DNA of 61,104 bases, from positions 1 to 61,104 of IMG/VR virus record IMGVR_UViG_3300042691_012873; one strand, written 5' to 3'. The translations under genes and the position numbers were made by a program. Origin of the DNA: a virus. Below the pieces are notes generated by a model, which was not told where the DNA came from, searched no databases, and was given only the letters and a program-made list of their open reading frames with translations. This document shows, piece by piece, positions 39,052-49,820 of the stretch. Numbering within the stretch: the stretch's first letter is position 1; each line of letters begins with the position of its first letter.

Positions 39052-39067
39052 TGTGACAATCATCACA
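39052..39067 (+). promoter_or_regulatory. CRP/GlxR-like palindrome
   Basis: TGTGA-CAATCA-TCACA, a perfect match to TGTGA-N6-TCACA, 11 bases upstream of the -35 box of the first rightward gene. Confidence 0.6.
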
Positions 39068-39077
39068 CCATCACAAC

Positions 39078-39106
39078 TTGACTTATCCCTCTCCATGCTG
39101 TAGTCT
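39078..39106 (+). promoter_or_regulatory. Leaderless promoter for 39113
   Basis: TTGACT, 17-base spacer ending CTG, TAGTCT, then six bases and ATG. Confidence 0.75.
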
Positions 39107-39112
39107 TAGACT

Positions 39113-39577
39113 ATGAGTAAGAGACAGGCTATGATCGTTGATATGGACGGTACCCTTGCCGATGTGAGTGGTATCAGGCACTACATCCTTCCCCCTACCC
39201 CCAAGCCTAAGGGGTGGCACAAGGACTTCCATGCCTTTCATAGTGAGAGCGTCAACGTGCCTGCTCATGCCCATGTGGTGGATCAGGTGCATAGGGCACA
39301 CATGCTAGGTACTACCATCATCATCGTTACTGCTAGGCGTGCTATGTACCGTCATGCAACAGCATGGTGGCTCGCCCTTCATGGTGTACCGTCAGACCTC
39401 ATGCTCATGCGAGGGGACAAGGACGGTCGCCCTGACTACGATGTCAAGAGTGACATACTCCACCGCATACAGCAGGAGTACGATGTGATCCATGCCATTG
39501 ATGACAACCCTGCTGTGCTGGCCCTCTGGGCAGAGCATGGTATCCCCACTACCGTAGTACCCTCATGGGAGGACTAG
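39113..39577 (+). CDS. HAD-family phosphatase (polynucleotide kinase 3'-phosphatase-like)
   Basis: A 154-residue protein with the HAD motifs in order: motif I VDMDGTLAD (residues 9-17), motif II IVTARR (about 70-75) and motif IV AIDDNPAV (about 130-137). This is like the phosphatase half of T4 Pnk, which removes 3' phosphates from RNA or DNA ends, so it may repair nicked tRNA or DNA. No kinase domain is attached. First gene of the rightward block, with a consensus promoter and no leader. Confidence 0.85.
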   Translation: MSKRQAMIVDMDGTLADVSGIRHYILPPTPKPKGWHKDFHAFHSESVNVPAHAHVVDQVHRAHMLGTTIIIVTARRAMYRHATAWWLALHGVPSDLMLMRGDKDGRPDYDVKSDILHRIQQEYDVIHAIDDNPAVLALWAEHGIPTTVVPSWED

Positions 39578-39578
39578 T

Positions 39579-39854
39579 ATGAGCAAGACTGATAAGACTC
39601 GCCCTGCCCGTGTGCAGATAGCATACGTCAAGGACAAGCATGGTGAGGCACACATTAACTGGCATACCGACGTAGCATGGCGACGGTACAAGGGTGATGG
39701 AGAATGGACTAACGAAATCCGTCATCGCAAGGATAGGTACTACTCCATTACTGATGGAATCATGGACTACCTTGACATTGAAGAAGAGAAGGTACAGGAT
39801 GAGGATGACCACAAGGAAGGCTGCATGTGGTGCTGTGGTGGATATGACTACTAG
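39579..39854 (+). CDS. Hypothetical protein with Cys-rich C-terminus
   Basis: A 91-residue protein starting MSKTDKTRPARVQIAYVKDK, ribosome site GGAGG six bases before ATG, one base after the phosphatase stop. Ends EGCMWCCGGYDY with three Cys. Charged, probably cytosolic. Family not recognised. Confidence 0.7.
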   Translation: MSKTDKTRPARVQIAYVKDKHGEAHINWHTDVAWRRYKGDGEWTNEIRHRKDRYYSITDGIMDYLDIEEEKVQDEDDHKEGCMWCCGGYDY

Positions 39855-40092
39855 GGTAGGTAGGGTACAGCACTACCTCCCAGAGGGGGATGAGCATACG
39901 TCGTTTCAGGTATACAACTACCCTCGCAACTGTACCGTTGTGTTCTTTAAGCATGACCGTGCTAGCGCTACCCTTGTGCCCTTCTTCGCTGACCATGAGG
40001 CTGTAGTGGTAAGGGACCATGGACACTCTGTGTTCTACACCCTTGTACCCTATGACCTTGTTACCTGCTACCTTGCTACACTACCCTCCTGA
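39844..40092 (+). CDS. Hypothetical protein
   Basis: An 82-residue protein (MTTRVGRVQHYLPEGDEHTS), overlapping the upstream gene by 11 bases in another frame. Pattern VYNYPRNCTVVFFKHDR then VVVRDHGHSVFYTLVPYD suggests a small beta fold. It closes this cluster; the GC hairpin follows 10 bases later. Confidence 0.65.
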   Translation: MTTRVGRVQHYLPEGDEHTSFQVYNYPRNCTVVFFKHDRASATLVPFFADHEAVVVRDHGHSVFYTLVPYDLVTCYLATLPS

Positions 40093-40102
40093 CTACCCTG
40101 CC

Positions 40103-40115
40103 GGGGCCGCGCCCC
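40103..40115 (+). terminator. GC-rich hairpin
   Basis: GGGGC-CGC-GCCCC, the form found after several rightward gene clusters. There is no T tract, so termination is uncertain. Confidence 0.45.
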
Positions 40116-40116
40116 C

Positions 40117-40132
40117 TGTGATATTACTCACA
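40117..40132 (+). promoter_or_regulatory. CRP/GlxR-like palindrome
   Basis: TGTGA-TATTAC-TCACA, followed by the TGTCCGTTTTGCC box at 40139-40151 and the -35 box at 40154. Confidence 0.6.
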
Positions 40133-40153
40133 CGCCAATGTCCGTTTTGCCCC

Positions 40154-40182
40154 TTGACCATACCCATATTATCCTGTATAGT
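40154..40182 (+). promoter_or_regulatory. Leaderless promoter for Gp88-like gene
   Basis: TTGACC, 17-base spacer ending CTG, TATAGT, seven bases, ATG. Confidence 0.7.
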
Positions 40183-40189
40183 TACACCT

Positions 40190-40936
40190 ATGACTACGAA
40201 AACAATGCTCCCCGTCCTAGCCGCTTCTAATGACCGGAAAGTGGCTTCCTGCGTTACTAAAAATGGAAAGCAGGCCGCTTTCTCAAATACTATGGGCCTT
40301 GCCAATGGAATTGACTATTCCTGCGTCGGTGCTACCGAATATTGCGAACTAATTTGCTACGCTGGCAAATTGGAAAACCTTTTTAAGGGTGTCGGGGCTG
40401 CCATGCTCCACAATTACAATGCCCTTAAGGATGCCAACCTTATCGACACTTTCGATATGCTGAACGCCCTTATCTGGGAATTCGATACTAAGTCTGAGAA
40501 AAAGGGCTCTGAGCGTATTTATCGCATCCATTGGGACGGGGACTTTTTCTCTGAAACCTATATTGAGGCATGGATTAACATTATCATCCTGTACCCGCAT
40601 ATCCAATTCTGGGTCTATACCCGTAATGCTAATGCTGCCGTCAGGCTGCACAAGGCTAATCTGCCTAATCTGTCGCTTTACTTTAGTGGCGACCCCAATA
40701 ATAAGCCGGTAGCAGATATGCTCTACCGTACTTATGGAATTAAGGTCGCTTTCGTTGCTGAGACTTTTGCAGAAAGTCAGGCGGCTGTCAAGGATATTAC
40801 CGGCAGGCCCGGTGCTATCTGTCCTGAGCAGCGTAAGCAAATTCCCCTTATTAGCACCGAGGGTAGCGCCTGTAGTGTCTGCCGTCTATGCGTTGATAAT
40901 AAGGCCAATATCTCATTCTCACGATCAAAGAAATAA
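40190..40936 (+). CDS. Gp88-family phage protein
   Basis: A 248-residue protein; ATG 40190 (MTTKTMLPVLAASNDRKVAS) fits the promoter spacing. It resembles the Gp88 family of actinophages: CVGATEYCELICYAGK (three Cys near residues 45-57), IHWDGDFFSETYIEAW, HIQFWVYTRNANAA, and a C-terminal CPEQRKQIP...CSVCRLC cluster. The Cys clusters suggest metal or iron-sulphur binding. Biochemical role unknown to me. AT-richer in codon use than its neighbours. Confidence 0.75.
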   Translation: MTTKTMLPVLAASNDRKVASCVTKNGKQAAFSNTMGLANGIDYSCVGATEYCELICYAGKLENLFKGVGAAMLHNYNALKDANLIDTFDMLNALIWEFDTKSEKKGSERIYRIHWDGDFFSETYIEAWINIIILYPHIQFWVYTRNANAAVRLHKANLPNLSLYFSGDPNNKPVADMLYRTYGIKVAFVAETFAESQAAVKDITGRPGAICPEQRKQIPLISTEGSACSVCRLCVDNKANISFSRSKK

Positions 40937-40947
40937 GGAAAATAATC

Positions 40948-41130
40948 ATGGATGACACTATCGGTCTGGATGACGTTTGCTACGCTATCTATCAAGATAA
41001 GGGCCAGAGGGCTGTCGAAGAATTTGTCTATAAGTATTTCCCCGACCTACCGTGGGAGCCGTGTATCGGCTGCGAGGATATCGAACCTAGGTATAAGGCT
41101 ATCTGTCTCGTGTGTGGGAGTGTATTCTAA
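40948..41130 (+). CDS. Small zinc-ribbon protein
   Basis: A 60-residue protein with CIGC...CLVC near its end (residues 39-57), preceded by acidic sequence (VEEFVYKYFPDLPWEP). Ribosome site AAGGAAAA, 11 bases after the Gp88-like stop. Function unknown. Confidence 0.65.
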   Translation: MDDTIGLDDVCYAIYQDKGQRAVEEFVYKYFPDLPWEPCIGCEDIEPRYKAICLVCGSVF

Positions 41131-41330
41131 TGATTACTGACGAATTCCCTTGTGAGTCTGTAGATAATGACTACCGTGGACTATTGGGGGCATATCAAAT
41201 GGATAATATGGAATATCCTCCCGATCCTGAGGAGGATATCTGCGAGCATGGCATGTCTGCATGGCTTTGCGCCCATCCTATTTACCACTACCCTACCGAT
41301 GAAATGATGAATGAAGGACGGTACTACTAA
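41130..41330 (+). CDS. Hypothetical small acidic protein
   Basis: 66 residues (MITDEFPCESVDNDYRGLLG), ATG overlapping the upstream stop (TAATG). Asp/Glu/Tyr-rich with CEHGMSAWLCAHP, a possible metal site. Confidence 0.65.
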   Translation: MITDEFPCESVDNDYRGLLGAYQMDNMEYPPDPEEDICEHGMSAWLCAHPIYHYPTDEMMNEGRYY

Positions 41331-41491
41331 TGACTATCGAACGCACACTAATCGGCGGGTGTGGAGTAGCGGGATGCCTTGACTGCCGCCCACTATTCAT
41401 TCAGACATACAATAGCAATGATGGGGCTATTAGAGAGTATGAGGTAATAGACTTCTCATACACTCAGGCAATGGAGGAATACAATGGATGA
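41330..41491 (+). CDS. Hypothetical small protein
   Basis: 53 residues (MTIERTLIGGCGVAGCLDCR), with TAATG overlap at its start. CGVAGCLDC gives three closely spaced Cys. It ends overlapping the next gene by eight bases. Confidence 0.6.
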   Translation: MTIERTLIGGCGVAGCLDCRPLFIQTYNSNDGAIREYEVIDFSYTQAMEEYNG

Positions 41492-41768
41492 CCGCTGGTG
41501 GCTGGTAGAGCAAATGCTCCGTAATGCGAAGGGTATGCATTTTGACGGTTGTCATAAAATCTACCTGTCTATGGATGATGAGCAGGTTAGGCAAATGGAG
41601 GAATGGGACTATGAGACATATGCTCCCAACCTCAAGGATATCGTAGACTGGTATGACGAGTCATGCGGCCTACGCTTTATCAACGCTGTTTTTACTAATG
41701 ACGATGCCAACGATGGTTTCGTTACGCTGATTCCGCAAGGGTATGGAGAAGGAAGATATTGTGGTTAG
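41484..41768 (+). CDS. Hypothetical protein
   Basis: 94 residues (MDDRWWLVEQMLRNAKGMHF), acidic and aromatic, ending GYGEGRYCG. Overlaps its neighbours on both sides, as in tightly packed phage accessory operons. No family. Confidence 0.65.
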   Translation: MDDRWWLVEQMLRNAKGMHFDGCHKIYLSMDDEQVRQMEEWDYETYAPNLKDIVDWYDESCGLRFINAVFTNDDANDGFVTLIPQGYGEGRYCG

Positions 41769-41895
41769 AGTAGAGATGCCTCGTGCATCATGGGAAATGG
41801 TACTGAGCGCTCTGGATATGCTTATTGAGCAGGGGTATCTAATGAAGGCTGAATACAAGGATATTGCTGAGCAGGTGTATAGTCAGGAATATTAA
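41761..41895 (+). CDS. Hypothetical small helical protein
   Basis: 44 residues from GTG 41761 (MVRVEMPRASWEMVLSALDM), overlapping the upstream stop. AAGGAAG lies seven bases before the GTG. The MPRASWEMVLSALD pattern is familiar from small actinophage proteins of unknown role. An internal ATG at 41776 is an alternative. Confidence 0.6.
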   Translation: MVRVEMPRASWEMVLSALDMLIEQGYLMKAEYKDIAEQVYSQEY

Positions 41896-41928
41896 CGGGG
41901 GCCGCGACCCGTTGTGACACACATCACA
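41896..41928 (+). promoter_or_regulatory. GC hairpin plus CRP/GlxR-like palindrome
   Basis: CGGG...CCCG hairpin at 41896-41911, then TGTGA-CACACA-TCACA at 41913-41928, followed by TGTCCGTTTTG. Confidence 0.55.
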
Positions 41929-41959
41929 TAAAGTTGTCCGTTTTGTATGCATTTTCAAC

Positions 41960-41988
41960 TTGCTTTCTGCCCCCATCCGTGGTAACCT
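41960..41988 (+). promoter_or_regulatory. First promoter of the hairpin-RNA region
   Basis: TTGCTT, 17-base spacer ending TGG, TAACCT. The start-site region reads ATAAGAAAATAGAGAG. Confidence 0.6.
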
Positions 41989-42057
41989 TAAGGTATAAGA
42001 AAATAGAGAGTGAGCAAGGTCAAGGATGAGCCTGCGTGAGCAAGTAAGCACAGAAAA

Positions 42058-42073
42058 TGTGATGAGCCTCACA
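42058..42073 (+). promoter_or_regulatory. CRP/GlxR-like palindrome between the tandem promoters
   Basis: TGTGA-TGAGCC-TCACA, a perfect match, 20 bases upstream of the second -35 box. Confidence 0.55.
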
Positions 42074-42093
42074 CAGCAAATAAGCCTCAGGAC

Positions 42094-42122
42094 TTGCAAA
42101 CCAGACCAAAGTGTGGTACTCT
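42094..42122 (+). promoter_or_regulatory. Second promoter of the hairpin-RNA and tRNA region
   Basis: TTGCAA, 17-base spacer ending TGG, TACTCT. The next 24 bases repeat those after the first promoter with few changes. Confidence 0.6.
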
Positions 42123-42420
42123 TAAGACATAAGAAAATAGAGAGTATCCAGAAGCGCTAGGAAGCGCAGATTGGGAGTCTGAAAGCCCCGAAGCACTAGT
42201 TGGGAATTGGAAAGCACAGGATGCGCCAGTCGAAACTAGAAACGCTAGGCACGCACAGACCGAAATCTGAAAGCGGTAAGAATCCGCTCACAAACTTGGG
42301 AAAACTGAGGAAAGCCGTAGTGGCAATGGTACTCAGAAGGGTGGAACGAACGCTCCGGTTAGACCGGGTTAGCCTAGTCCCCGAAACCCCAAAACACAAG
42401 GGTAGTAGGTACAAATAGTG

Positions 42421-42564
42421 ACACGTTCAATGTTAAATGAGGTTCTCGCCACCAATGCCTATAGTAATCCCCTTGAACCCCCGGCTCTCAGTAGCACCCG
42501 CAAGGGATAGGCCAGTCACCGGGAAGGTAGGGAAGCCTGAGAATATTCCTACCACACACACTTC
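42421..42564 (+). other. Leader between hairpin array and tRNAs
   Basis: No gene found. It is Pro/Gly-codon-like and GC-rich with a CTCAG...CTGAG pairing possibility around 42487-42541. It is not a tRNA. Confidence 0.4.
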
Positions 42565-42635
42565 GGGGGTATAGTCTAACGGTAAAACCGCTGACTCTTA
42601 ATCAGCAGATCGGGGTTCGATTCCCTGTGCCCCCA
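42565..42635 (+). tRNA. tRNA-Lys (anticodon CTT)
   Basis: GGGGGTA pairs with TGCCCCC; TTCGATT T-loop; anticodon loop CTCTTAA gives CTT. Discriminator A. No CCA encoded. Confidence 0.9.
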
Positions 42636-42652
42636 CTAGCGGCCCAGACGAC

Positions 42653-42723
42653 GGGGATATGGTGAAAAGGTATCACAGTTGCTTTGCAAGCAATCGTTCG
42701 GGGTTCAAATCCCTGTATCTCCA
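42653..42723 (+). tRNA. tRNA-Ala (anticodon TGC)
   Basis: GGGGATA pairs with TATCTCC with one wobble; T-loop TTCAAAT; anticodon loop TTTGCAA with a GTTGC/GCAAT stem. Confidence 0.88.
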
Positions 42724-42728
42724 CTCTT

Positions 42729-42800
42729 GCCTAGGTAGTTCAATGGTAGAACGGCGCACTTGTAATGCGTTGGTTGAGGGTTCGATTCCTTCTCTAGGCT
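42729..42800 (+). tRNA. tRNA-Thr (anticodon TGT)
   Basis: GCCTAGG pairs with TCTAGGC; T-loop TTCGATT; anticodon loop CTTGTAA in a GCGCA stem. Discriminator T. Confidence 0.88.
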
Positions 42801-42805
42801 CTCCA

Positions 42806-42877
42806 TGGGGTATAGTGAAAAGGTCATCACTACAATCTGATACGTTGTCATTCATGGTTCGAATCCATGTACCCCAA
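42806..42877 (+). tRNA. tRNA-Ile (anticodon GAT)
   Basis: TGGGGTA pairs with TACCCCA; T-loop TTCGAAT; anticodon loop CTGATAC with an ACAAT/GTTGT stem. Confidence 0.87.
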
Positions 42878-42882
42878 CTCTG

Positions 42883-42954
42883 TGGCATGTAGCACAACGG
42901 CAGTGCGTTCGACTGTTAATCGAAAGGTTGGAGGTTCGAATCCTCCCATGCCAG
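42883..42954 (+). tRNA. tRNA-Asn (anticodon GTT)
   Basis: TGGCATG pairs with CATGCCA; T-loop TTCGAAT; anticodon loop CTGTTAA in a TTCGA/TCGAA stem. Confidence 0.9.
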
Positions 42955-42958
42955 CCAA

Positions 42959-43030
42959 GGAATCATAGTGTAGAGGTTAACACGCCACCCTGTCACGGTG
43001 GTAACACGGGTTCGATCCCCGTTGGTTCCG
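42959..43030 (+). tRNA. tRNA-Asp (anticodon GTC)
   Basis: GGAATCA pairs with TGGTTCC; T-loop TTCGATC; anticodon loop CTGTCAC in a CCACC/GGTGG stem. Confidence 0.9.
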
Positions 43031-43048
43031 CTCATCAAATCTTCAATA

Positions 43049-43079
43049 GGGGCGCGGCCCCCATGTGATGCAAGCCACA
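43049..43079 (+). promoter_or_regulatory. GC hairpin plus CRP-like palindrome after the tRNAs
   Basis: GGGGC-GCG-GCCCC at 43049-43061 ends the tRNA transcript. TGTGA-TGCAAG-CCACA at 43064-43079 has one mismatch. Confidence 0.5.
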
Positions 43080-43121
43080 TAAATATTTTTCAGAATGTCC
43101 TATTTTGTCCCATTTTGCGAG

Positions 43122-43151
43122 TTGCGAAGTGGCACCTACCTGTGGTACCCT
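43122..43151 (+). promoter_or_regulatory. Promoter for 43176
   Basis: TTGCGA, 18-base spacer ending TGG, TACCCT, the same type as the two hairpin-RNA promoters. The leader carries AAAGAAAGG. Confidence 0.55.
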
Positions 43152-43175
43152 AAGGGTAGAAAGAAAGGTTAGACA

Positions 43176-43325
43176 ATGTTCGTTTACTTGGTCCATCTTA
43201 CCTCTGGTAAGTCTGTTCGTGTGGTTACCGCTGGTGACCCTACCGACCACCCTGCCTTCTGGGGCCGTGTGGCCGATGTTGAGACTCTGGGCGAGGACGG
43301 CAAGTTGCTGTCCCTCGTTCCCTAG
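43176..43325 (+). CDS. Hypothetical small protein
   Basis: 49 residues (MFVYLVHLTSGKSVRVVTAG), a probable small beta protein ending LGEDGKLLSLVP. Ribosome site GAAAGG nine bases upstream. Single-gene unit between two regulatory cassettes. Confidence 0.65.
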   Translation: MFVYLVHLTSGKSVRVVTAGDPTDHPAFWGRVADVETLGEDGKLLSLVP

Positions 43326-43347
43326 TGTCAGACCCCTCTGCTAGTCT
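43326..43347 (+). promoter_or_regulatory. TGTCAGACCCC-type promoter element
   Basis: TGTCAGACCCC, TCTGC, then TAGTCT. It starts at the first base after the upstream stop codon. Confidence 0.6.
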
Positions 43348-43368
43348 TTGATTGTCGAAAGGAACAAA

Positions 43369-43566
43369 GTGAGCACCTTCACTCAGATCAAGAGCGCCTG
43401 TGGTCGCATCACCACAGACATTGATATCTTCGATCTGCCCCTCAACCCTCACGGGATCATCTGCTGCCCTGAGTGCGAACTCATCATTCAGAGCCGTGAG
43501 GCTTGGGATGACTTCGAGGATGAGGACTATTGGGAGCAGATGTGGGGGATGGACGGTAATGCGTAA
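43369..43566 (+). CDS. Hypothetical small acidic protein with CPEC motif
   Basis: 65 residues from GTG 43369 (MSTFTQIKSACGRITTDIDI), chosen because GAAAGGAAC precedes it at the proper distance. CCPEC near residue 35, acidic Trp-rich end (DYWEQMWGMDGNA). Overlaps the next gene by eight bases. Confidence 0.65.
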   Translation: MSTFTQIKSACGRITTDIDIFDLPLNPHGIICCPECELIIQSREAWDDFEDEDYWEQMWGMDGNA

Positions 43567-43750
43567 GAACTACCGTGTCCTCAAGGCATCTAGCCGCCAT
43601 GGGCGTGAGCATACTCAGTACCGTGTGGAGTCATTCACCATGTATGGCACTACCTTTACTTTCATTGTCCGTCCCCGCCATGGGTCGTACAAGTTCCGAC
43701 TGTCAGACCCCCATTGTGATTCTTGTCACACTAGGCGAAATGCGACATAA
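43559..43750 (+). CDS. Hypothetical basic protein
   Basis: 63 residues (MRKNYRVLKASSRHGREHTQ), basic, ending LSDPHCDSCHTRRNAT. The last 16 codons contain a TGTCAGACCCCC motif and a TGTGA-N6-TCACA palindrome, so regulatory DNA and coding DNA overlap; the HCDSCH tail may be an accident of the shared sequence. Confidence 0.6.
   Translation: MRKNYRVLKASSRHGREHTQYRVESFTMYGTTFTFIVRPRHGSYKFRLSDPHCDSCHTRRNAT
43715..43730 (+). promoter_or_regulatory. CRP/GlxR-like palindrome inside a gene end
   Basis: TGTGA-TTCTTG-TCACA, a perfect match, within the 3' end of the upstream gene and 40 bases before the next promoter element. Confidence 0.5.
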
Positions 43751-43770
43751 CGGACATTCGCCTGTCTGAA

Positions 43771-43792
43771 TGTCAGACCCCCCTGCTACAAT
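43771..43792 (+). promoter_or_regulatory. TGTCAGACCCC-type promoter element
   Basis: TGTCAGACCCC, CCTGC, TACAAT. GTCTGA-ATG-TCAGAC forms an inverted repeat at its left edge. Leader GAAAC...AACGAAAGG follows. Confidence 0.6.
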
Positions 43793-43822
43793 GAAACTAA
43801 GAAACAAACGAAAGGCTATACA

Positions 43823-44255: not shown

Positions 44256-44266
44256 GGATTCACACA

Positions 44267-44527: not shown

Positions 44528-44529
44528 TC

Positions 44530-44873: not shown

Positions 44874-44901
44874 GTGTTGGGATTAAACAACTTCTGAGGG
44901 T

Positions 44902-44934
44902 CGGGGCGCGGCCCGTCCTGTGAGATTCATCACA
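44902..44934 (+). promoter_or_regulatory. GC hairpin plus CRP/GlxR-like palindrome
   Basis: CGGGGC-GCG-GCCCG region at 44902-44915 and TGTGA-GATTCA-TCACA at 44919-44934, followed by TGTCCGTTTTGC at 44953. Confidence 0.55.
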
Positions 44935-44984
44935 TAAACTTTTTTCTGCGTGTGTCCGTTTTGCACACATTCTGAGGCCAAGAA

Positions 44985-45006
44985 TGTCAGACCCCCCTGC
45001 TAGACT
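44985..45006 (+). promoter_or_regulatory. TGTCAGACCCC-type promoter element
   Basis: TGTCAGACCCC, CCTGC, TAGACT. This gap holds both cassette types. Confidence 0.6.
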
Positions 45007-45032
45007 GATGGCATAGAAAGAAAGGAAAGACA

Positions 45033-45116
45033 ATGACTCAGATTCTCTGCTCTGGTTGCGACAGTCGCCATGACCGTCGTGATTGCCCTCACAAGGGCTA
45101 CCTCAACCGAAAGTAA
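45033..45116 (+). CDS. Tiny Cys/His protein
   Basis: 27 residues, MTQILCSGCDSRHDRRDCPH then KGYLNRK. CSGC...CPH could bind zinc. Ribosome site AAGGAAAG, own promoter. Among the shortest likely genes here. Confidence 0.55.
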   Translation: MTQILCSGCDSRHDRRDCPHKGYLNRK

Positions 45117-45228
45117 CGGTTAGGTAACGGTTCTGATTGGGTGTCCGATATCACCCGATTCCCCCGAACTAAATGTCAGACCCCTCTGCTAGGATGAGGG
45201 TATAGAAAGAAACAAGAAAGGTAAGAAA
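45117..45228 (+). promoter_or_regulatory. Hairpin and TGTCAGACCCC promoter
   Basis: GGGTG-TCCGATAT-CACCC hairpin at 45139-45156 and the promoter element TGTCAGACCCC, TCTGC, TAGGAT at 45174-45195. The hairpin loop holds TCCGAT. Confidence 0.5.
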
Positions 45229-45444
45229 ATGATCCGCATTTGCACTACCGACCTCATGGTTGGCGACCACGTTTTCACTTCTGGTGGAATGGAGGGCATC
45301 GTCACTTGGATGCCTAAGCACCGTCAGGGTCGTTTCTGGGTTGAGATTGACGGTACGCCAGTCTCCATGCGGGATTGCGGCTCTATCGAACTCCGCTCCG
45401 CTCTTGGGGATCGTGAGCCTGTCAAGTCATTCGGACGCTGGTAG
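45229..45444 (+). CDS. Hypothetical protein with SH3-like pattern
   Basis: 71 residues (MIRICTTDLMVGDHVFTSGG). The VGDHV...EGIVTWM...GRFWVEIDG spacing is like small KOW/SH3-like barrels; the proteins at 48626 and 52865 have similar VGDxY/VGDRV blocks. Confidence 0.65.
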   Translation: MIRICTTDLMVGDHVFTSGGMEGIVTWMPKHRQGRFWVEIDGTPVSMRDCGSIELRSALGDREPVKSFGRW

Positions 45445-45456
45445 AAAGGAAACACA

Positions 45457-45633
45457 ATGATTACCAAGCATGATTTCGCAGAGGCAGTAGTCGATACCAT
45501 CACCGCTAAGGTGTGGTCATTCGATACTGACCAGACTATCGACATTGAGATTTGGAATGGCGATACCTACGTCAATACCCTGACCATTTCCGTAGAGAAT
45601 GGCGCTGTCATTCACAATGCGATTGGAGCATAA
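45457..45633 (+). CDS. Hypothetical small protein
   Basis: 58 residues (MITKHDFAEAVVDTITAKVW), a helix then beta strands (IDIEIWNGDTYVNTLTISVE). GAAAGGAAAC ribosome site. Followed immediately by the next ATG. Confidence 0.65.
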   Translation: MITKHDFAEAVVDTITAKVWSFDTDQTIDIEIWNGDTYVNTLTISVENGAVIHNAIGA

Positions 45634-45924
45634 ATGCCTACTTACACTATCGTTCACCCGCAGGCTGATGAGATCAGTGTGCAGAACAGCGAATACCATA
45701 TGTGCCGCAAGGGTATCTCTAGTGAGATTGCTTTCTTCCTCAATGGCAAATGGGTATGCGATCCCATTGAGCCGTTCGCTGACTACCACGACGGTAGCAT
45801 TGGTGGCACTTCTGTCTATGGCTATGTGCCTGATGAACTCATTGATGCATTCATGGCTGAGAATGGGGCAGTCCAAAAGCGTTGGGATATAACGGTTATT
45901 GGCTATGGGCGTAGTCCATGGTGA
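45634..45924 (+). CDS. Hypothetical protein
   Basis: 96 residues (MPTYTIVHPQADEISVQNSE). Starts right after the upstream TAA. Two Cys, otherwise acidic. A good terminator follows. Confidence 0.65.
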   Translation: MPTYTIVHPQADEISVQNSEYHMCRKGISSEIAFFLNGKWVCDPIEPFADYHDGSIGGTSVYGYVPDELIDAFMAENGAVQKRWDITVIGYGRSPW

Positions 45925-45930
45925 GGGCCG

Positions 45931-45956
45931 AAAGTTGTTGGTACTAAACAACTTTT
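45931..45956 (+). terminator. Intrinsic terminator
   Basis: Perfect nine-base stem AAAGTTGTT/AACAACTTT with seven-base loop and a TTTT end, six bases after the stop. Confidence 0.8.
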
Positions 45957-45960
45957 CACC

Positions 45961-45989
45961 TGTGGATAACTTGGGAAATCTGTGGATAA
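45961..45989 (+). other. Pair of DnaA-box-like sites
   Basis: Two exact TGTGGATAA sequences (reverse of TTATCCACA) whose starts are 20 bases apart, in a gap with an AT-rich follow-up and a TGTCCGATTTG box. Confidence 0.4.
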
Positions 45990-46047
45990 CTCTGTTACCA
46001 TCTCGTTATACAACCTGTCCGATTTGATAGCATTTCCAAGCCTCCAA

Positions 46048-46069
46048 TGTCAGACCCCCCTGCTAGAAT
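46048..46069 (+). promoter_or_regulatory. TGTCAGACCCC-type promoter element
   Basis: TGTCAGACCCC, CCTGC, TAGAAT, then the conserved leader ending GAAAGGTTACACA before ATG. Confidence 0.6.
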
Positions 46070-46098
46070 AAAACCAAGAAACAACGAAAGGTTACACA

Positions 46099-46254
46099 AT
46101 GAACGTCTGGGTTATCACTTACCGATTTAACAATCAGGATCGAACCATTATCCAAGAGAACGACCTGCATGACGTGGCTGACGTTATCAAGGGTGTGCAT
46201 CCTTCCATTGCAACCAAGTTGGTTGACGTAGAGTTTGTGGGGACACTCGCATGA
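46099..46254 (+). CDS. Hypothetical small protein
   Basis: 51 residues (MNVWVITYRFNNQDRTIIQE), beta start and helix. Similar layout to the 46-residue product at 46722 (VxxYxxN...). Ends with an ATGA overlap. Confidence 0.65.
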   Translation: MNVWVITYRFNNQDRTIIQENDLHDVADVIKGVHPSIATKLVDVEFVGTLA

Positions 46255-46592
46255 GTTATGAGGTTCACTTCCTAGGTCGCCCTGTATTCTCTACCCGCTC
46301 ATGGGAGGATGCTGTTGAGAAGATTAACAGCCGTGTTGAGTTGGCTGGCGACGGCACCACATTTGATGACTACGAGATTATTGGAAGGTCCCCCGCCTTG
46401 CCCGTGAGTATTCAGTTTCGGGAGGATGTCTGGCACTTCATTGCAGACACCCTGAACGACCGTATGGAAAATGCTGTGGACCTCATGGGAACGTGCAGTG
46501 AAGATGAGGAGGCGGTGGAGTACCTCAAAGAAATTGAGCAGCGCTGTTCCGCTCTCATTGATACTATCACTACAAGGCTGCAAAGCCGATGA
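46251..46592 (+). CDS. Hypothetical protein
   Basis: 113 residues (MSYEVHFLGRPVFSTRSWED). The C-terminal 60 residues form a likely long helix with one Cys (EDEEAVEYLKEIEQRCSALI). No family recognised. Confidence 0.65.
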   Translation: MSYEVHFLGRPVFSTRSWEDAVEKINSRVELAGDGTTFDDYEIIGRSPALPVSIQFREDVWHFIADTLNDRMENAVDLMGTCSEDEEAVEYLKEIEQRCSALIDTITTRLQSR

Positions 46593-46735
46593 CAGCGTGG
46601 TGTGAGGGTAGTACGAAGGGTCATAGTGCCAAGGATGGATGGACACTTGACCCCAATAGTGGACAGTGGGTGTGCTCCTACTGTCGTAAGCCTTCTAAGA
46701 TGAACTATGAAAGTGAGAACAATGAGTCAGTATAG
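46589..46735 (+). CDS. Small zinc-binding protein
   Basis: 48 residues (MTAWCEGSTKGHSAKDGWTL) with C...H in the first half and CSYCRKPSK in the second, a possible C-H-C-C zinc site. ATGA start overlap. Confidence 0.6.
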   Translation: MTAWCEGSTKGHSAKDGWTLDPNSGQWVCSYCRKPSKMNYESENNESV

Positions 46736-46862
46736 AGTTTACTACCTGAACGTCTTTCAGCGGTCCTTCCCCAATAGGGATGCTGCCCTAGACTACATTC
46801 GTAGTCGTGAGGAGTTTTCTCCTGAGGACTTTGAGATTCTGGATGTTTCAGATGTATTCTAA
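46722..46862 (+). CDS. Hypothetical small protein
   Basis: 46 residues ([20 protein letters not shown]). Overlaps both the gene before and the HNH gene after. Resembles the N-terminus of the 113-residue product (beta strand, then DAALDYI helix). Confidence 0.6.
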
Positions 46863-47244
46863 GGCTCCTGCCCGGTTCTGGGCGAGGGTAGTCATGGGGG
46901 CTCCCGATGAATGTTGGGAGTGGTCAGGGTATGTCAATCCCGGCGGGTATGGACAATACAACTATTGGAAGGCACACAGACTCTCATATTTCCTGACTTA
47001 TGGAGAGTGGCCCGATGTTGTTATGCACCTGTGTGATAATCGTTCCTGTGTGAATCCACGGCACTTGCGAGCAGGCTCTCCTGCTGACAACGTTGGAGAT
47101 ATGGTGTCCAAGGGCCGACACGCCAACCAAGCCAAGACCCATTGCAAGTGGGGGCACCCATACAATGACGAGAACACAAAATATGTAGATGGTAGGCGTA
47201 GGTGCAAGAGTTGCATCCAGCGCTGGAACGATGAAAGGAAATAG
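46843..47244 (+). CDS. HNH endonuclease (HNH_3-like)
   Basis: About 133 residues from ATG 46843 (130 from 46852). [34 protein letters not shown], and [20 protein letters not shown] with the Asn-Arg core are typical of the small HNH homing nucleases found in phages. The end has a Cys/His cluster (HCKWGHPYN...CKSC). It overlaps the upstream gene in another frame, a sign of insertion at a gene end. Confidence 0.85.
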
Positions 47245-47253
47245 TGATTTCCG

Positions 47254-47460
47254 GTGAAGTCTAACAAGGAACTTACTGAGACTCAGTTTGCTATGCGTCA
47301 CGCTCTCTACCGTGCGGCAAATGAGGTCAACAAGATCATTGACAGTCTTGAGAGTCTTGCATTTGTGAATGAGAACGCAGAGGATCGCATAGAGACTGTG
47401 ACTATCGGATTAAAGAATGTCAAGTATGATATTGCTGATGCGTTGAGTGCTGTAGGGTAA
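47254..47460 (+). CDS. Hypothetical helical protein
   Basis: 68 residues from GTG 47254 (MKSNKELTETQFAMRHALYR), mostly helical (ANEVNKIIDSLESLAFVNEN). Ribosome site weak; a later ATG at 47293 is possible. Confidence 0.5.
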   Translation: MKSNKELTETQFAMRHALYRAANEVNKIIDSLESLAFVNENAEDRIETVTIGLKNVKYDIADALSAVG

Positions 47461-47485
47461 AAATCTGAGGCGGGGCGCGGTCCAA

Positions 47486-47501
47486 TGTGACAATCATCAC
47501 A
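47486..47501 (+). promoter_or_regulatory. CRP/GlxR-like palindrome
   Basis: TGTGA-CAATCA-TCACA, identical to the copy at 39052. A degenerate GC hairpin (47470-47483) precedes and TGTCCGTTTTGCC follows at 47508. Confidence 0.6.
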
Positions 47502-47542
47502 CTCCAATGTCCGTTTTGCCTCTTCCCATCCAACGAAAAGTG

Positions 47543-47551
47543 TGGTAAAGT
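47543..47551 (+). promoter_or_regulatory. Leaderless -10 element
   Basis: TGG then TAAAGT, six bases, ATG 47558. The -35 box is weak. Confidence 0.5.
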
Positions 47552-47557
47552 ATTACC

Positions 47558-47692
47558 ATGATGAAAACAAGAAAGAAGACCCGTGAGGAAGTGCAGTATT
47601 GGCAGGACCTTCGCCGGTCCAATGCTGCCCAGCCCCATCGTAATAAGAGCAAGTATACTAGGAAGGCCAAGCACCGTAATGCCGAATACTGA
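47558..47692 (+). CDS. Small very basic protein
   Basis: 44 residues (MMKTRKKTREEVQYWQDLRR) with over a third Lys, Arg and His; it could bind nucleic acid. Start fits a leaderless promoter. The stop overlaps the next gene. Confidence 0.6.
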   Translation: MMKTRKKTREEVQYWQDLRRSNAAQPHRNKSKYTRKAKHRNAEY

Positions 47693-47822
47693 ATTTGTCT
47701 ATGCCACCCTCATGGTTACTCCTGATGAGGCAAGCGTGCTCAATCAAATCCTTGAGTATACCTATGACAATACCTCTGACCTTAACTATATCAAGGCTGC
47801 TATTCTGAGAGGAGAAATCTAA
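47679..47822 (+). CDS. Hypothetical small protein
   Basis: 47 residues (MPNTEFVYATLMVTPDEASV), starting within the upstream gene. Helical with regular charge pattern. Overlaps the next start by one base. Confidence 0.6.
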   Translation: MPNTEFVYATLMVTPDEASVLNQILEYTYDNTSDLNYIKAAILRGEI

Positions 47823-48067
47823 TGGGAAGTCCTGTTCAGACTCTTATCGACAACGCCGATTATGAGCCTGTCCCTCCTGCCCCTGTCCTTTCCTTGATGG
47901 ACCGTTGCGACCGTTGTATTCAGCGAGCATGGGTGCGGGTGGCAAACAAGAAGGGTCTTCCCTTGCAATTCTGTGCTCATCATGCACGCAAGTTTGAGGC
48001 AAGCCTCATTGGGTTTGCCCAAGATACTATTGATGAGACCGACAACGGTTTTAGTAGGGATAAGTAA
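47822..48067 (+). CDS. DUF7455-like zinc-ribbon protein
   Basis: 81 residues (MGSPVQTLIDNADYEPVPPA). CDRCIQRAWVRV...LPLQFCAHHARKFE is the pattern of a widespread actinobacterial and actinophage zinc-ribbon family (CDRC x AxVR ... LxFCxHH). Function of the family is unknown. Confidence 0.75.
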   Translation: MGSPVQTLIDNADYEPVPPAPVLSLMDRCDRCIQRAWVRVANKKGLPLQFCAHHARKFEASLIGFAQDTIDETDNGFSRDK

Positions 48068-48147
48068 TGAAGATTAAAATTCCCCCCTTCCTGTTGGAAA
48101 ACATCGTTCTCATGGCTACCGGCTTTTTGGCGCTGTGGTTCGGATGA
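48067..48147 (+). CDS. Single-pass membrane peptide
   Basis: 26 residues, MKIKIPPFLLENIVLMATGF then LALWFG, nearly all one membrane segment. TAATG and ATGA overlaps at both ends support translation. Confidence 0.55.
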   Translation: MKIKIPPFLLENIVLMATGFLALWFG

Positions 48148-48326
48148 ACGCACACGTCTATGAAATGCCCTATGATGATGACGAGGACAAATGGATCGTC
48201 TACACTGATAACGACTTCCTGTGCTATGTCGATGGGGATGAGTTTGGGGACTGGATTTCACTCTGGAAGTCAACCCTAGACATTCACATCTATTTCTATA
48301 CCCCGTTGTTTGGGGGGTGCGCATGA
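48144..48326 (+). CDS. Hypothetical small acidic protein
   Basis: 60 residues from ATG 48144 (MNAHVYEMPYDDDEDKWIVY), which overlaps the upstream stop. Acidic, Trp/Tyr-rich. No family. Confidence 0.6.
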   Translation: MNAHVYEMPYDDDEDKWIVYTDNDFLCYVDGDEFGDWISLWKSTLDIHIYFYTPLFGGCA

Positions 48327-48538
48327 AGGTCATTGATAGAATAGAAGTCTATTCGCTTGAAGTAGGGGACAGGGTAATTATCCGTGGCAGTGAGTACGTC
48401 ATTAATTCCATGTTTCCCACCGGCAGCGGGTACATCATTCATCTGTTAGATGAGTGGTCCGAGTTTAAGTCTATTGAGGTATCTGATACCGATACGCTTC
48501 CCTGTATTGTGTTGGATAGTCCCGACTACGAAGAGTAG
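48323..48538 (+). CDS. Hypothetical small beta protein
   Basis: 71 residues from ATG 48323 (MKVIDRIEVYSLEVGDRVII), overlapping the upstream stop. VGDRVIIRGSEYVINSM resembles the SH3-like proteins at 45229 and 52865. End of this cluster. Confidence 0.65.
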   Translation: MKVIDRIEVYSLEVGDRVIIRGSEYVINSMFPTGSGYIIHLLDEWSEFKSIEVSDTDTLPCIVLDSPDYEE

Positions 48539-48555
48539 CGTTACCGAAACGTGAC

Positions 48556-48584
48556 TTGACAATAGCGCCGGTATCCGGTATACT
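48556..48584 (+). promoter_or_regulatory. Consensus sigma70-type promoter
   Basis: TTGACA, 17-base spacer, TATACT. One of the strongest matches in the window. Confidence 0.8.
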
Positions 48585-48625
48585 TGAGTCATCAGAAAGA
48601 CCCACTACAGCACTAAGGAATACAT

Positions 48626-48808
48626 ATGCCGAGCAAGCCCAAGTCAGTCAAGGTTGGCGACACCTACCGTACCTCCCGTTCGGGCCTCCGTGGTACCGTT
48701 CTAGATATCCACAAGCACAACGGTCGGAAGATCGTGGAGATGACCGTCAATGACGACGTTATCTTCTCTACCCTCCCACGGGGCATCCGTGCCAACGTTA
48801 CTGTCTAA
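48626..48808 (+). CDS. Hypothetical basic SH3-like protein
   Basis: 60 residues (MPSKPKSVKVGDTYRTSRSG), with VKVGDTYRTSRSGLRGTVLD like a KOW/SH3 barrel, and Lys/His-rich middle. AAGGAA ribosome site. Monocistronic, with a strong promoter and a hairpin after it. Confidence 0.7.
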   Translation: MPSKPKSVKVGDTYRTSRSGLRGTVLDIHKHNGRKIVEMTVNDDVIFSTLPRGIRANVTV

Positions 48809-48817
48809 TTAAAAAAC

Positions 48818-48858
48818 GGTAAGACCCCACTCTATGAGATAGAGATAAGACTCTTACC
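48818..48858 (+). terminator. Nested hairpin
   Basis: Outer GGTAAGA/TCTTACC and inner CTCTAT-GAG-ATAGAG stems, 10 bases past the stop. It lacks a T tract, so it may be a processing or stability element. Confidence 0.5.
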
Positions 48859-49007
48859 ATATGCCACCCAAGCAAGGGGATAAAGGTGGCCTTCAACTTC
48901 CTCACTACTGGTCATAGTGGGGAATGGACGAAAGATGTGAGGTACCTTTCCCTCTTTCCTTTCGACCAACATCCTGAGTATGATGTAAAACTACTCAAAT
49001 ACTTTTT
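48859..49007 (+). other. No convincing gene
   Basis: An open frame from GTG 48886 runs through the hairpin and operator that follow and has no ribosome site. I do not call it. Confidence 0.4.
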
Positions 49008-49041
49008 GCGGGGCGCGACCCGCCCTGTGACCGACATCACA
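49008..49041 (+). promoter_or_regulatory. GC hairpin plus CRP/GlxR-like palindrome
   Basis: GCGGG-GCGCGA-CCCGC at 49008-49023, then TGTGA-CCGACA-TCACA at 49026-49041. Confidence 0.6.
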
Positions 49042-49051
49042 ACACCAGAAG

Positions 49052-49081
49052 TTGACTCCCAGAGCAATTATGTGGTATTGT
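49052..49081 (+). promoter_or_regulatory. Promoter for 49105
   Basis: TTGACT, 18-base spacer ending TGG, TATTGT. Confidence 0.6.
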
Positions 49082-49104
49082 AGTGTCAACAGAAAGGGAA
49101 AATA

Positions 49105-49221
49105 ATGGCTATTTTCGAGTTTTCAGACGGCTTCGACGCTCAAGGCTGGTACACTGAGCAGATGATGCGGGGTCATTTCGATGAGGATTCCCTTGACTCG
49201 TGGGGCTTCGGGGACGAGTAG
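49105..49221 (+). CDS. Small acidic protein
   Basis: 38 residues (MAIFEFSDGFDAQGWYTEQM), Asp/Phe/Trp-rich. AGAAAGGGAA before the ATG; stands alone between two operator cassettes. Confidence 0.55.
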   Translation: MAIFEFSDGFDAQGWYTEQMMRGHFDEDSLDSWGFGDE

Positions 49222-49235
49222 GCCCCGCGCCCCCG

Positions 49236-49251
49236 TGTGTTACACATCACA
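49236..49251 (+). promoter_or_regulatory. CRP/GlxR-like palindrome
   Basis: TGTGT-TACACA-TCACA, one mismatch, 10 bases upstream of the -35 box. Confidence 0.5.
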
Positions 49252-49261
49252 CTCTCAGGAC

Positions 49262-49290
49262 TTGACTACAGCCCCCATCGATGCTATAGT
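49262..49290 (+). promoter_or_regulatory. Leaderless promoter for 49297
   Basis: TTGACT, 17-base spacer, TATAGT, six bases, ATG. Confidence 0.75.
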
Positions 49291-49296
49291 AGAACT

Positions 49297-49545
49297 ATGA
49301 ATGAGACCAAGGAAGCGGTTCACAGCCCCGCCACTATCGACTGTGTAGAGTGCGCCTATGAGGGTCGTGGCCTCCACAACGCCATGCCTTTCGCTGGCAT
49401 CCACCAGCGTGGGGAGGACTGGACCAACGTTGCCTATGGTCCTTGCCCGGTGTGTGGCGAGCGCACCACCGCTCTGTGGGGCTTTGAGATGCTGGCCCCC
49501 ATTACCCGTAGCAATATTTCTGATGAGGACTGGTACGTTCGATGA
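49297..49545 (+). CDS. Zinc-ribbon protein
   Basis: 82 residues from ATG 49297 (MNETKEAVHSPATIDCVECA). CVEC near residue 16 and CPVCGERTTALWGFE near 52 are paired zinc knuckles. Ends with ATGA overlap. Leaderless by promoter spacing; a longer open frame upstream runs through the operator and is rejected. Confidence 0.7.
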   Translation: MNETKEAVHSPATIDCVECAYEGRGLHNAMPFAGIHQRGEDWTNVAYGPCPVCGERTTALWGFEMLAPITRSNISDEDWYVR

Positions 49546-49748
49546 ATGACGATTTTGACTTCGTGATGGAGTCGTGTGGCTGGGGTACTGATGAGCAGTA
49601 CGGCTACTACGGTGATCCCTATGAGTACCCCGAGACAATGTGGGAAGACCTCACAGACGAGGACCATGCCGAGATGAAGGCATCCTTTGATGAGCCTATG
49701 ATGGGCTATGAGGACTTCTATGCTGAGGCTGCACTGAATAGGGAGTAA
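49542..49748 (+). CDS. Small acidic protein
   Basis: 68 residues (MNDDFDFVMESCGWGTDEQY), about a third Asp and Glu with many Tyr. Such very acidic small phage proteins can mimic DNA, but there is no direct evidence here. Confidence 0.6.
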   Translation: MNDDFDFVMESCGWGTDEQYGYYGDPYEYPETMWEDLTDEDHAEMKASFDEPMMGYEDFYAEAALNRE

Positions 49749-49775
49749 GGGTACCCTAACCCTACCCGCGCCCCG

Positions 49776-49820
49776 TGTGATCTATCTCACATTGACAATG
49801 GTTTCCAAGTCCGGTATACT
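49776..49820 (+). promoter_or_regulatory. CRP-like palindrome abutting a consensus promoter
   Basis: TGTGA-TCTATC-TCACA at 49776-49791 is followed at once by TTGACA, 17 bases and TATACT (49792-49820). A bound protein would touch the -35 box. Confidence 0.7.

What the first reader, a model, noticed from the sequence alone, without database searches (positions are those of the whole stretch)
39052..49791. At least ten TGTGA-N6-TCACA palindromes ahead of rightward genes suggest a CRP/GlxR-type regulon in the phage
Seen: copies start at 39052, 40117, 41913, 42058, 43064, 43715, 44919, 47486, 49026, 49236 and 49776; eight are perfect and the rest differ by one or two bases. Most lie 10-40 bases upstream of a -35 box, and a diverged copy (37842) overlaps the leftward promoter. 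Known: this is the consensus of CRP and of GlxR in corynebacteria. Inference: either the phage senses the host cAMP state or it encodes its own dimeric repressor outside the window.
Basis: partly seen in the sequence, partly recalled or inferred. Interest (0 to 1): 0.82.

Follow-up and report, generated by a model that had tools for sequence, protein, structure and literature searches.

The report
Phage promoters wired to host regulators
A bacterial virus, and many of its relatives, carries rows of perfect binding sites for a bacterial master regulator, CRP, placed at exact helical steps in front of its promoters, which suggests that the virus runs these genes with its host's own control proteins.

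Summary
In detail: 9 perfect TGTGA-N6-TCACA sites (12 with at most one mismatch) lie in 39-50 kb, against 0.02 perfect expected from shuffles; the rest of the window has no perfect site. It is not peculiar to this phage. Of 20 long IMG/VR relatives that I chose, 17 carry 4-11 perfect sites, 105 in all, with no control match. After redundancy removal, 76% of perfect sites and 61% of a separate set of one-mismatch sites have a promoter downstream, against 15% for two-mismatch sites and 14-24% for scrambled palindromes; distances to the predicted start cluster on a 10.5-bp lattice, about -53.5, -64.5, -74.5, -84.5. That is the geometry of a class-I CRP activator rather than of a repressor. CRP-family domains were found in none of 20 phage records, while 58 of 61 genomes of a candidate host order have a CRP orthologue. 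Many of the promoters also match the published motif of PafBC, a DNA-damage activator. Best reading: host CRP, often with PafBC, drives these phage genes. Binding, cAMP dependence and host identity are untested; the candidate host shows no such regulon of its own. Cyanophage NtcA sites are the nearest precedent.

The parts
39052..39067 (+). perfect CRP-type site; centre about -53.5 from TTGACT(39078)-N17-TAGTCT; predicted start is the ATG of the HAD/PNKP-phosphatase-like gene 39113-39577
   Evidence: a higher-scoring promoter candidate at -82.5 was also listed
40117..40132 (+). perfect site; centre about -64.5 from TTGACC(40154)-N17-TATAGT; GP88-family gene (40190-40936)
41913..41928 (+). perfect site; centre about -74.5 from a weak -10 TAACCT (41983) placed by eye within a 33-nt repeat; upstream of a non-coding stretch and the tRNA array
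   Evidence: the scan found no promoter here
42058..42073 (+). perfect site; centre about -63.5 from TTGCAA(42094)-N17-TACTCT; second copy of the 33-nt repeat; same tRNA operon
   Evidence: weak promoter
43064..43079 (+). one-mismatch site; centre about -86.5 from weak TTGCGA(43122)-N18-TACCCT; ORF 43176-43325
   Evidence: not the highest-scoring candidate (that was -134.5)
43715..43730 (+). perfect site; centre about -76.5 from the PafBC-type promoter at 43771
   Evidence: distance worked out by hand
44919..44934 (+). perfect site; centre about -86.5 from the PafBC-type promoter at 44985
   Evidence: distance worked out by hand
47486..47501 (+). perfect site; centre about -64.5 from TTCCCA(47523)-N17-TAAAGT; predicted start at ATG 47558
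49026..49041 (+). perfect site; centre about -54.5 from TTGACT(49052)-N18-TATTGT
49236..49251 (+). one-mismatch site; centre about -53.5 from TTGACT(49262)-N17-TATAGT; predicted start is the ATG of ORF 49297-49545
49776..49791 (+). perfect site abutting TTGACA(49792)-N17-TATACT; centre about -43.5
43771..43792 (+). PafBC-type promoter TGTCAG-N10-TANNNT
   Evidence: motif as printed in PMC8151990
44985..45006 (+). PafBC-type promoter
43326..43347 (+). PafBC-type promoter without a CRP-type site within 200 bases upstream
45174..45195 (+). PafBC-type promoter; only the probably chance site 45078 upstream
46048..46069 (+). PafBC-type promoter without a perfect or one-mismatch CRP-type site nearby
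37842..37857 (.). one-mismatch site between leftward and rightward genes; no convincing promoter either way

Best explanation
The palindromes are binding sites of the host's CRP (the actinobacterial CRP/GlxR orthologue). CRP bound there activates phage promoters from one face of the helix, as a class-I activator, by touching RNA polymerase held at the next -35/-10 or TGTCAG/-10 element. The phage thus puts a block of small, probably early genes and its tRNA operon under a host global activator, with consensus-strength sites that should be occupied even at low CRP activity. In many relatives the same promoters also match the motif of PafBC, an actinobacterial activator that answers single-stranded DNA, so the two host regulators probably act together. 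Shown: the sites, their density, their occurrence across the clade, the phasing, no CRP-family or WYL match in 20 of 20 phage records, and CRP (58 of 61) and WYL genes (8 of 8) in genomes of a candidate host order. Inferred: that CRP binds, that it activates, that the genes are early, and which host.
For: Nine perfect sites against 0.02 expected in 11 kb. In a scan of every 5-mer half-site with gaps 0-12, TGTGA with gap 6 was the top palindrome in four of five site-bearing loci tried (L028, L048, L109, L027; not in L126, which has one perfect site). 90 of 101 relative loci, with redundancy, hold at least one perfect site; 17 of 20 long records carry 4-11, 105 in 2.03 Mb, control 0 (three of the 11 in G013 recur at both record ends). 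A relative with 52% portal identity has four perfect sites. Phasing: perfect sites 104 of 137 with a promoter, nR2 45.1 at 10.5 bp; one-mismatch sites, a separate set, 98 of 160, nR2 35.6, same phase; two-mismatch sites 58 of 378, nR2 1.9; scrambled palindromes 14-24%, no phase. Direction: of 245 sites, 152 have a sigma70-like promoter downstream on the locus strand and 49 in the reverse direction; PafBC-type 151 and 7. The core avoids A at position 6 (3%) and is 85% A/T at the two central bases, as in CRP sites (recalled). No PF00027 or PF13545 match in 20 of 20 phage records, while control genomes rang (10 and 14 of 14). Of 69 proteins of this phage scanned with Pfam the only transcription-factor match was WhiB. 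58 of 61 genomes of the order of G025 have a CRP orthologue, with SRETVNKALADF of the recognition-helix region identical to Mycolicibacterium CRP in 30 of 30 read; the closest solved chains are CRP/FNR regulators.
Against: The candidate host order itself shows almost no perfect sites (1 in 10 genomes, control 4) and no excess of one-mismatch sites (86 against 93 control in 6 genomes): no regulon with this consensus is visible there. The host link rests on WhiB, on cultured relatives that infect Streptomyces, and on one 4.7-kb phage-like contig binned in an Actinomycetota MAG (L138); for the window's own phage there is no direct link. 3 of the 20 long records (G006, G007, G010) and 11 of 101 loci have no perfect site, among them the closest relative by GP88 (L029, 75%). 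Cultured family members lack arrays: Faust 1 site, Mandalore 0. One minor group of PafBC-type promoters lies off the lattice, at -69.5 (14 of 145; 4 of 104). Several window promoters are weak, chosen by eye or not the best-scoring candidate, and promoter-like matches in the region do not exceed shuffles. Start sites are predicted, not mapped. The series lies 2-3 bp from the E. coli series as I recall it. Only 18% of sites have the central TA that I recall for GlxR.
Confidence: 0.78

Rival explanations
1. A phage-encoded, non-CRP activator recognises TGTGA-N6-TCACA and switches on these promoters. The resemblance to the CRP consensus is convergence.
For: The candidate host order shows no visible regulon of its own with this consensus. 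Most of the small phage proteins match no family, so an unknown regulator could hide among them; one ORF (L025:13978-14295) looks MerR-like to my eye but has no Pfam match.
Against: The motif equals the printed GlxR consensus TGTGA-N6-TCACA (PMC7999487), the geometry is CRP-like, and no CRP-family match was found in 20 of 20 records. The only transcription-factor match among 69 proteins scanned with Pfam was WhiB, which is not known to bind such palindromes (recalled).
Confidence: 0.15
2. The sites are operators or stoperators of a phage repressor, as in mycobacteriophage L5-like phages.
For: Many near-identical sites in short intergenic stretches of one region are typical of such systems (recalled).
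Against: Sites sit upstream of the promoters, mostly at -52 to -86 on a 10.5-bp lattice, and do not overlap the boxes. L5-type stoperators are asymmetric (recalled). No repressor or integrase match in the proteins scanned (not the whole genome).
Confidence: 0.04
3. The palindromes are a decoy: perfect sites, copied with the phage DNA, pull CRP off host promoters and so mute the host regulon.
For: Site density in the 20 phage records is 51.6 per Mb against 0.59 per Mb in 118 Actinomycetota genomes.
Against: Phasing to promoters would not be needed for a decoy. It may be a side effect.
Confidence: 0.02
4. RNA hairpins or terminators: the inverted repeat works in the transcript.
For: In this phage a GC-rich dyad stands just upstream of seven of the eleven sites, and of an eighth by eye.
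Against: The half-site letters are fixed rather than covarying, and hardly any other 5-bp half-site with a 6-bp gap stands out (CCCGC three times in L048). The phase to downstream promoters is unexplained.
Confidence: 0.01

Closest known systems
NtcA sites in T4-like marine cyanophages (PMC3037559, passages read)
   Same: Host CRP-family activator (family recalled for NtcA and stated in the listing of PMC3898017); the paper reports 1-16 NtcA sites per genome, mean 8.9, in all 16 cyanophages, proposed to exploit the host response.
   Different: There GTA-N8-TAC and nitrogen status in cyanobacteria; here TGTGA-N6-TCACA in phages of apparently actinobacterial hosts, with helical phasing measured and a PafBC-type core promoter.
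CtrA sites in Alphaproteobacteria phages (PMC9437464, abstract and passages read)
   Same: Dense, skewed, intergenic clusters of sites for a host master regulator; binding and regulation shown by experiment there.
   Different: Another regulator; sites in terminal repeats or gap regions; both activation and repression; proposed purpose lytic deferment.
CRP control of T1-type prophage genes in E. coli (PMC6737242, passages read)
   Same: Host CRP acts on phage promoters.
   Different: [quoted passage not shown] no array of activator sites described in the passages.
PhoB control of cyanophage S-PM2d genes (PMC10976474, passages read)
   Same: Host regulator binds several phage promoters, shown by EMSA.
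   Different: Phosphate response; 7 of 14 up-regulated genes had a putative Pho box.
CRP/GlxR regulons of mycobacteria and corynebacteria (PMC4117774: one section and passages; PMC7999487: passages)
   Same: Same consensus; upstream binding goes with activation.
   Different: Bacterial genes; CRP sites of M. tuberculosis cluster at -60 to -40 and +1 to +20, not on a lattice out to -85.
PafBC (RecA-NDp) promoters of mycobacteria (PMC8151990, PMC11804915, PMC6789036: passages read)
   Same: TGTCAG-10xN-TA-3xN-T is printed as a form of the PafBC motif; the phage promoters match it with the same spacing.
   Different: Known there for DNA-damage-induced bacterial genes; here on phage genes, often beside CRP-type sites.

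Membership tests
CRP/GlxR binding sites | TGTGA-N6-TCACA dyad well above chance | tested here: met
   9 perfect against 0.02 expected in 11 kb
CRP/GlxR binding sites | position upstream of promoters on one helical face | tested here: met
   10.5-bp lattice in perfect and one-mismatch sites, absent in controls; predicted, not mapped, starts; a minor -69.5 group is off the lattice
CRP/GlxR binding sites | a CRP orthologue with the matching recognition helix in the host | tested here: inconclusive
   58 of 61 genomes of a candidate order, SRETVNKALADF identical in 30 of 30; that this order is the host is not established, and G025 itself gave no match
CRP/GlxR binding sites | same consensus enriched in the host's own genome | tested here: not met
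   candidate order: no enrichment. Phylum sample 208 sites against 26 control in 118 genomes, but many of those listed read TGTGAA-N4-TTCACA and may belong to another regulator
CRP/GlxR binding sites | physical binding by CRP, cAMP effect | not testable with these tools
   needs gel shift or ChIP
PafBC-dependent promoters | TGTC(A/G)G-N10-TA-N3-T, directional | tested here: met
   TGTCAG form: 658 on the locus + strand against 19 on the - strand in 81 partly redundant sources; scrambled 2/4 and 5/0; 5 in the window against 0.61 expected
PafBC-dependent promoters | pafB-pafC in the host | tested here: inconclusive
   WYL genes in 8 of 8 candidate-order genomes, in each two of them about 0.9 kb apart, two ORFs side by side read in L216; host not established
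PafBC-dependent promoters | induction by DNA damage or ssDNA through PafBC | not testable with these tools
   needs expression assays
phage-encoded repressor/operator array | cognate DNA-binding protein in the phage | tested here: inconclusive
   CRP family absent in 20 of 20 records; 69 proteins scanned with Pfam gave WhiB only; proteins without any family match remain

The most novel reading that the evidence does not exclude
A whole clade of uncultured actinophages has put an early regulon under a two-input host circuit: host CRP (metabolic state) on a fixed helical lattice, combined with host PafBC (single-stranded DNA), so that these genes fire when the cell is in the right metabolic state and phage replication or damage exposes ssDNA. 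The consensus-strength sites would also out-compete host promoters for CRP.
Probability: 0.35. Interest if true: 0.85.

Novelty: new variant of a known kind. Interest (0 to 1): 0.74.

Why it matters
Use of host regulators by phages is known from a few cases. Here the evidence is unusually strong for a sequence-only result: a dose-response from perfect to one-mismatch to two-mismatch sites, and helical phasing in some 200 non-redundant sites from many phages. It makes phage take-over of uncultured actinobacteria testable in model actinobacteria, ties it to cAMP and DNA-damage signalling, and gives a natural library of phased CRP promoters for studying activation in actinobacteria.

Tried and rejected
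Rejected: a phage CRP gene outside the window; chance; an RNA hairpin reading; a decoy alone (does not explain phasing). The A/T periodicity seen around sites is significant only downstream (upstream P 0.09), where the promoters themselves may cause it, so I do not use it as evidence of bending. A search for another palindrome in the eleven relatives without perfect sites (L029-L032, L038, L050, L053, L061, L074, L078, L088) gave only weak or homopolymer-type hits, and three of the eleven nothing. Megablast of window 36000-50000 against known phages gave no match. The 575-nt leader before the tRNAs is not more structured than shuffles (z -0.9), and Rfam at gathering thresholds finds only the six tRNAs. 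Pfam scans of small ORFs gave almost nothing.

Literature: 10 searches showed me no paper on CRP or PafBC sites in actinophages in the listings; several listings gave only the first 10-20 of many papers, and most subscription journals are not held, so this is not proof of absence.


Full report
WHAT WAS CLAIMED AND WHAT IS THERE. The finding listed eleven TGTGA-N6-TCACA copies between 39 and 50 kb. All eleven are present; nine are perfect and two have one mismatch. In 300 dinucleotide shuffles of the window the mean number of perfect sites is 0.12, and in 500 shuffles of the 11-kb stretch it is 0.02. The first 39 kb and the last 11 kb of the window have no perfect site. Allowing up to two mismatches the count is at chance.

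WHAT THE WINDOW IS. It is a 61,104-base IMG/VR virus record. Its portal protein is 100% identical to that of a 98,864-base record, G003. By coordinate arithmetic, G003 covers the same phage as a circular map of about 98.4 kb; I did not align the ends. The best listed portal matches among known phages, 20 of 229 records shown, are Streptomyces phages at 44-46% identity; Faust and Mandalore are Stanwilliamsviridae. G003 encodes a WhiB protein (L026:14184-14483), which PMC10202952 (first of two parts read) names as an indicator of actinophages. The 39 kb of G003 fetched to complete the genome have no perfect and no one-mismatch site, so the array is confined to one block of small rightward genes with six tRNAs.

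THE ARRAY IS A CLADE FEATURE. 90 of these 101 loci, with redundancy, hold at least one perfect site. Over all 129 sources then held, with redundancy, there are 526 perfect sites against 5 of the reversed motif. Of 20 long records that I chose from these loci (not all the long ones), 17 have 4-11 perfect sites, 105 in 2.03 Mb, with no control match; G006, G007 and G010 have none. Three of the 11 sites of G013 recur at both ends of the record and may be a terminal repeat. The habitat is not shown by the tools; I take it to be fresh water from MAG titles and recall. A relative with 52% portal identity (G005) has four perfect sites; three of the four have promoter matches at -53.5 to -55.5 on one strand, but three also have matches on the other strand (-64.5, -54.5, -53.5), so direction is open there. 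The cultured relatives Faust (1 site) and Mandalore (0) and a 22-kb part of Mycobacterium phage KingCyrus (0) lack the array. Of the 12 GP88-bearing loci in GTDB genomes, L129, L130 and L138 carry 4, 1 and 1 perfect sites; six Geodermatophilus/Blastococcus loci and L133, L139, L140 carry none (L133 has one one-mismatch site).

THE SITES ARE LOCKED TO PROMOTERS. I took 245 perfect sites after removing those over 80% alike over 136 bases and dropping sites within 150 bases of a locus end. 152 have a sigma70-like promoter downstream on the locus strand against 49 the other way, and the predicted distances from start to site centre pile up at -53.5, -64.5, -74.5 and -84.5 with few between. With PafBC-type promoters allowed, 210 of 245 have at least one promoter. 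A minor group of PafBC-type promoters lies off the lattice at -69.5 (14 of 145). With a stricter cut (55% flank identity, site masked) 103 of 140 sites have a promoter at -35 to -100, nR2 44.3 at 10.5 bp, against 10.8 for the 99.9th percentile of 2000 random sets. The decisive control is (loci L028-L128). Perfect sites: 104 of 137 with a promoter at -35 to -100, nR2 45.1. One-mismatch sites, a separate set: 98 of 160, nR2 35.6, same phase to 0.1 bp. Two-mismatch sites: 58 of 378, nR2 1.9. Scrambled half-sites: 3 of 22, 54 of 373, 9 of 37 and 76 of 428, nR2 1.0 to 2.4. So perfect and one-mismatch copies are kept in a fixed relation to promoters, and weaker ones are chance.

IN THE WINDOW ITSELF the eleven sites sit at about -43.5, -53.5 (two), -54.5, -63.5, -64.5 (two), -74.5, -76.5 and -86.5 (two) from predicted starts (nR2 9.0 at 10.5 bp). 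For 39052 and 43064 I chose a candidate that was not the best-scoring one, for 41913 the scan found none and I placed the -10 by eye, and 42058 is weak; 43715 and 44919 use the PafBC-type promoters. This small set was therefore fitted after the fact and only illustrates the clade result. Promoter-like matches in the region as a whole do not exceed shuffles. Predicted starts fall on an ATG at 39113, 47558 and 49297, which suggests leaderless transcripts (inference).

A SECOND HOST-TYPE MOTIF. In 81 partly redundant sources (window and L028-L107) TGTCAG-N10-TANNNT occurs 658 times on the locus strand and 19 times on the other; TGTCAGTG-N8-TANNNT 253 and 8; spacers of 9 and 11 give 7/8 and 6/4, of 12 and 8 give 33/0 and 14/2; scrambled hexamers 2/4 and 5/0. 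PMC8151990 prints forms of the PafBC motif as TGTCGG-10xN-TA-3xN-T and TGTCAG-10xN-TA-3xN-T (passage). PMC11804915 reports that PafBC is activated by single-stranded DNA and that PafB contacts a -26 motif (passages). In the window there are five, two of them behind CRP-type sites. WYL genes are in 8 of 8 candidate-order genomes, in each two about 0.9 kb apart, and in 0 of 20 phage records; L216 shows two such ORFs side by side (named pafB and pafC by me, not by a family search).

WHO BINDS. PF00027 and PF13545 ring in none of 20 phage records, while control genomes ring. Of 69 proteins of this phage scanned with Pfam, only WhiB is a transcription-factor match; most small proteins have no match, so an unknown regulator is not excluded. 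A genome scan with GP88 placed one phage-like contig with a site (L138) in an Actinomycetota MAG, G025. In the order of G025, 58 of 61 genomes have a CRP orthologue, 46-56% identical; G025, G066 and G074 gave none. SRETVNKALADF is identical to Mycolicibacterium CRP in 30 of 30 read. Against this reading, the same order has 1 perfect site in 10 genomes (control 4) and 86 one-mismatch sites against 93 control in 6 genomes. Its PafBC pattern is weakly enriched (14 against 5 in 8 genomes). In a phylum sample perfect sites are commoner than control (208 against 26 in 118 genomes), but many of the listed ones read TGTGAA-N4-TTCACA, a form that the phage sites avoid (A at position 6 in 3%), so part of that excess may belong to another regulator.

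HOW IT MOST LIKELY WORKS. Host CRP binds and, from one helical face, recruits polymerase. The consensus-strength sites would keep occupancy high. Where a PafBC motif replaces the -35, the promoter would need or profit from both host factors. Early timing is inferred from gene type and position. Whether cAMP matters is open.

NOVELTY. Host-regulator sites in phages are known: NtcA in cyanophages, CtrA, CRP on T1 genes, PhoB. New here, as far as my ten searches show, are a CRP-type array in phages of apparently actinobacterial hosts, its strict phasing, and its coupling with PafBC-type promoters. I therefore call it a new variant of a known kind.

Noticed in passing
window 43326, 43771, 44985, 45174, 46048; L048, L033 and many of L028-L107: PafBC (RecA-NDp) promoter motif TGTCAG-N10-TANNNT at high density and on one strand: a likely DNA-damage/ssDNA-responsive phage regulon in its own right.
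   Followed up: yes
window 40104, 41899, 43049, 44903, 47472, 49010, 49222; also 51212 and 54083: GC-rich dyad GGGGCGCGRCCC just upstream of seven of the eleven CRP-type sites, and twice without one; perhaps a terminator of the upstream gene without a T run.
   Followed up: partly
window 40139, 41935, 44953, 47508 (+), 49870 (-): Repeated TGTCCGTTTTG element, four exact copies between a CRP-type site and its promoter; with up to one mismatch 11 copies against 0.85 expected. Unknown binder.
   Followed up: no
window 41979-42145 and on to 42564: A 33-nt promoter/leader repeat (two copies, 134 bases apart) and about 450 bases of apparently non-coding leader before six tRNA genes; no Rfam match and no unusual folding.
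   Followed up: partly
window 17153-20113 flanked by 16465-17187 and 20100-20696: Ribonucleotide reductase gene flanked on both sides by endonuclease-VII/HNH-type genes.
   Followed up: no
window 57448-58191: Predicted phage protein with a matrixin-type (M10) metalloprotease match.
   Followed up: no
L222 24093-24108 (Streptomyces phage Faust): Single perfect TGTGA-N6-TCACA site in a 1.5-kb gap between annotated genes.
   Followed up: no
L027 2336-5461 (G005): Ribonucleotide-reductase-like ORF that appears by eye to hold an intein-type insertion.
   Followed up: no
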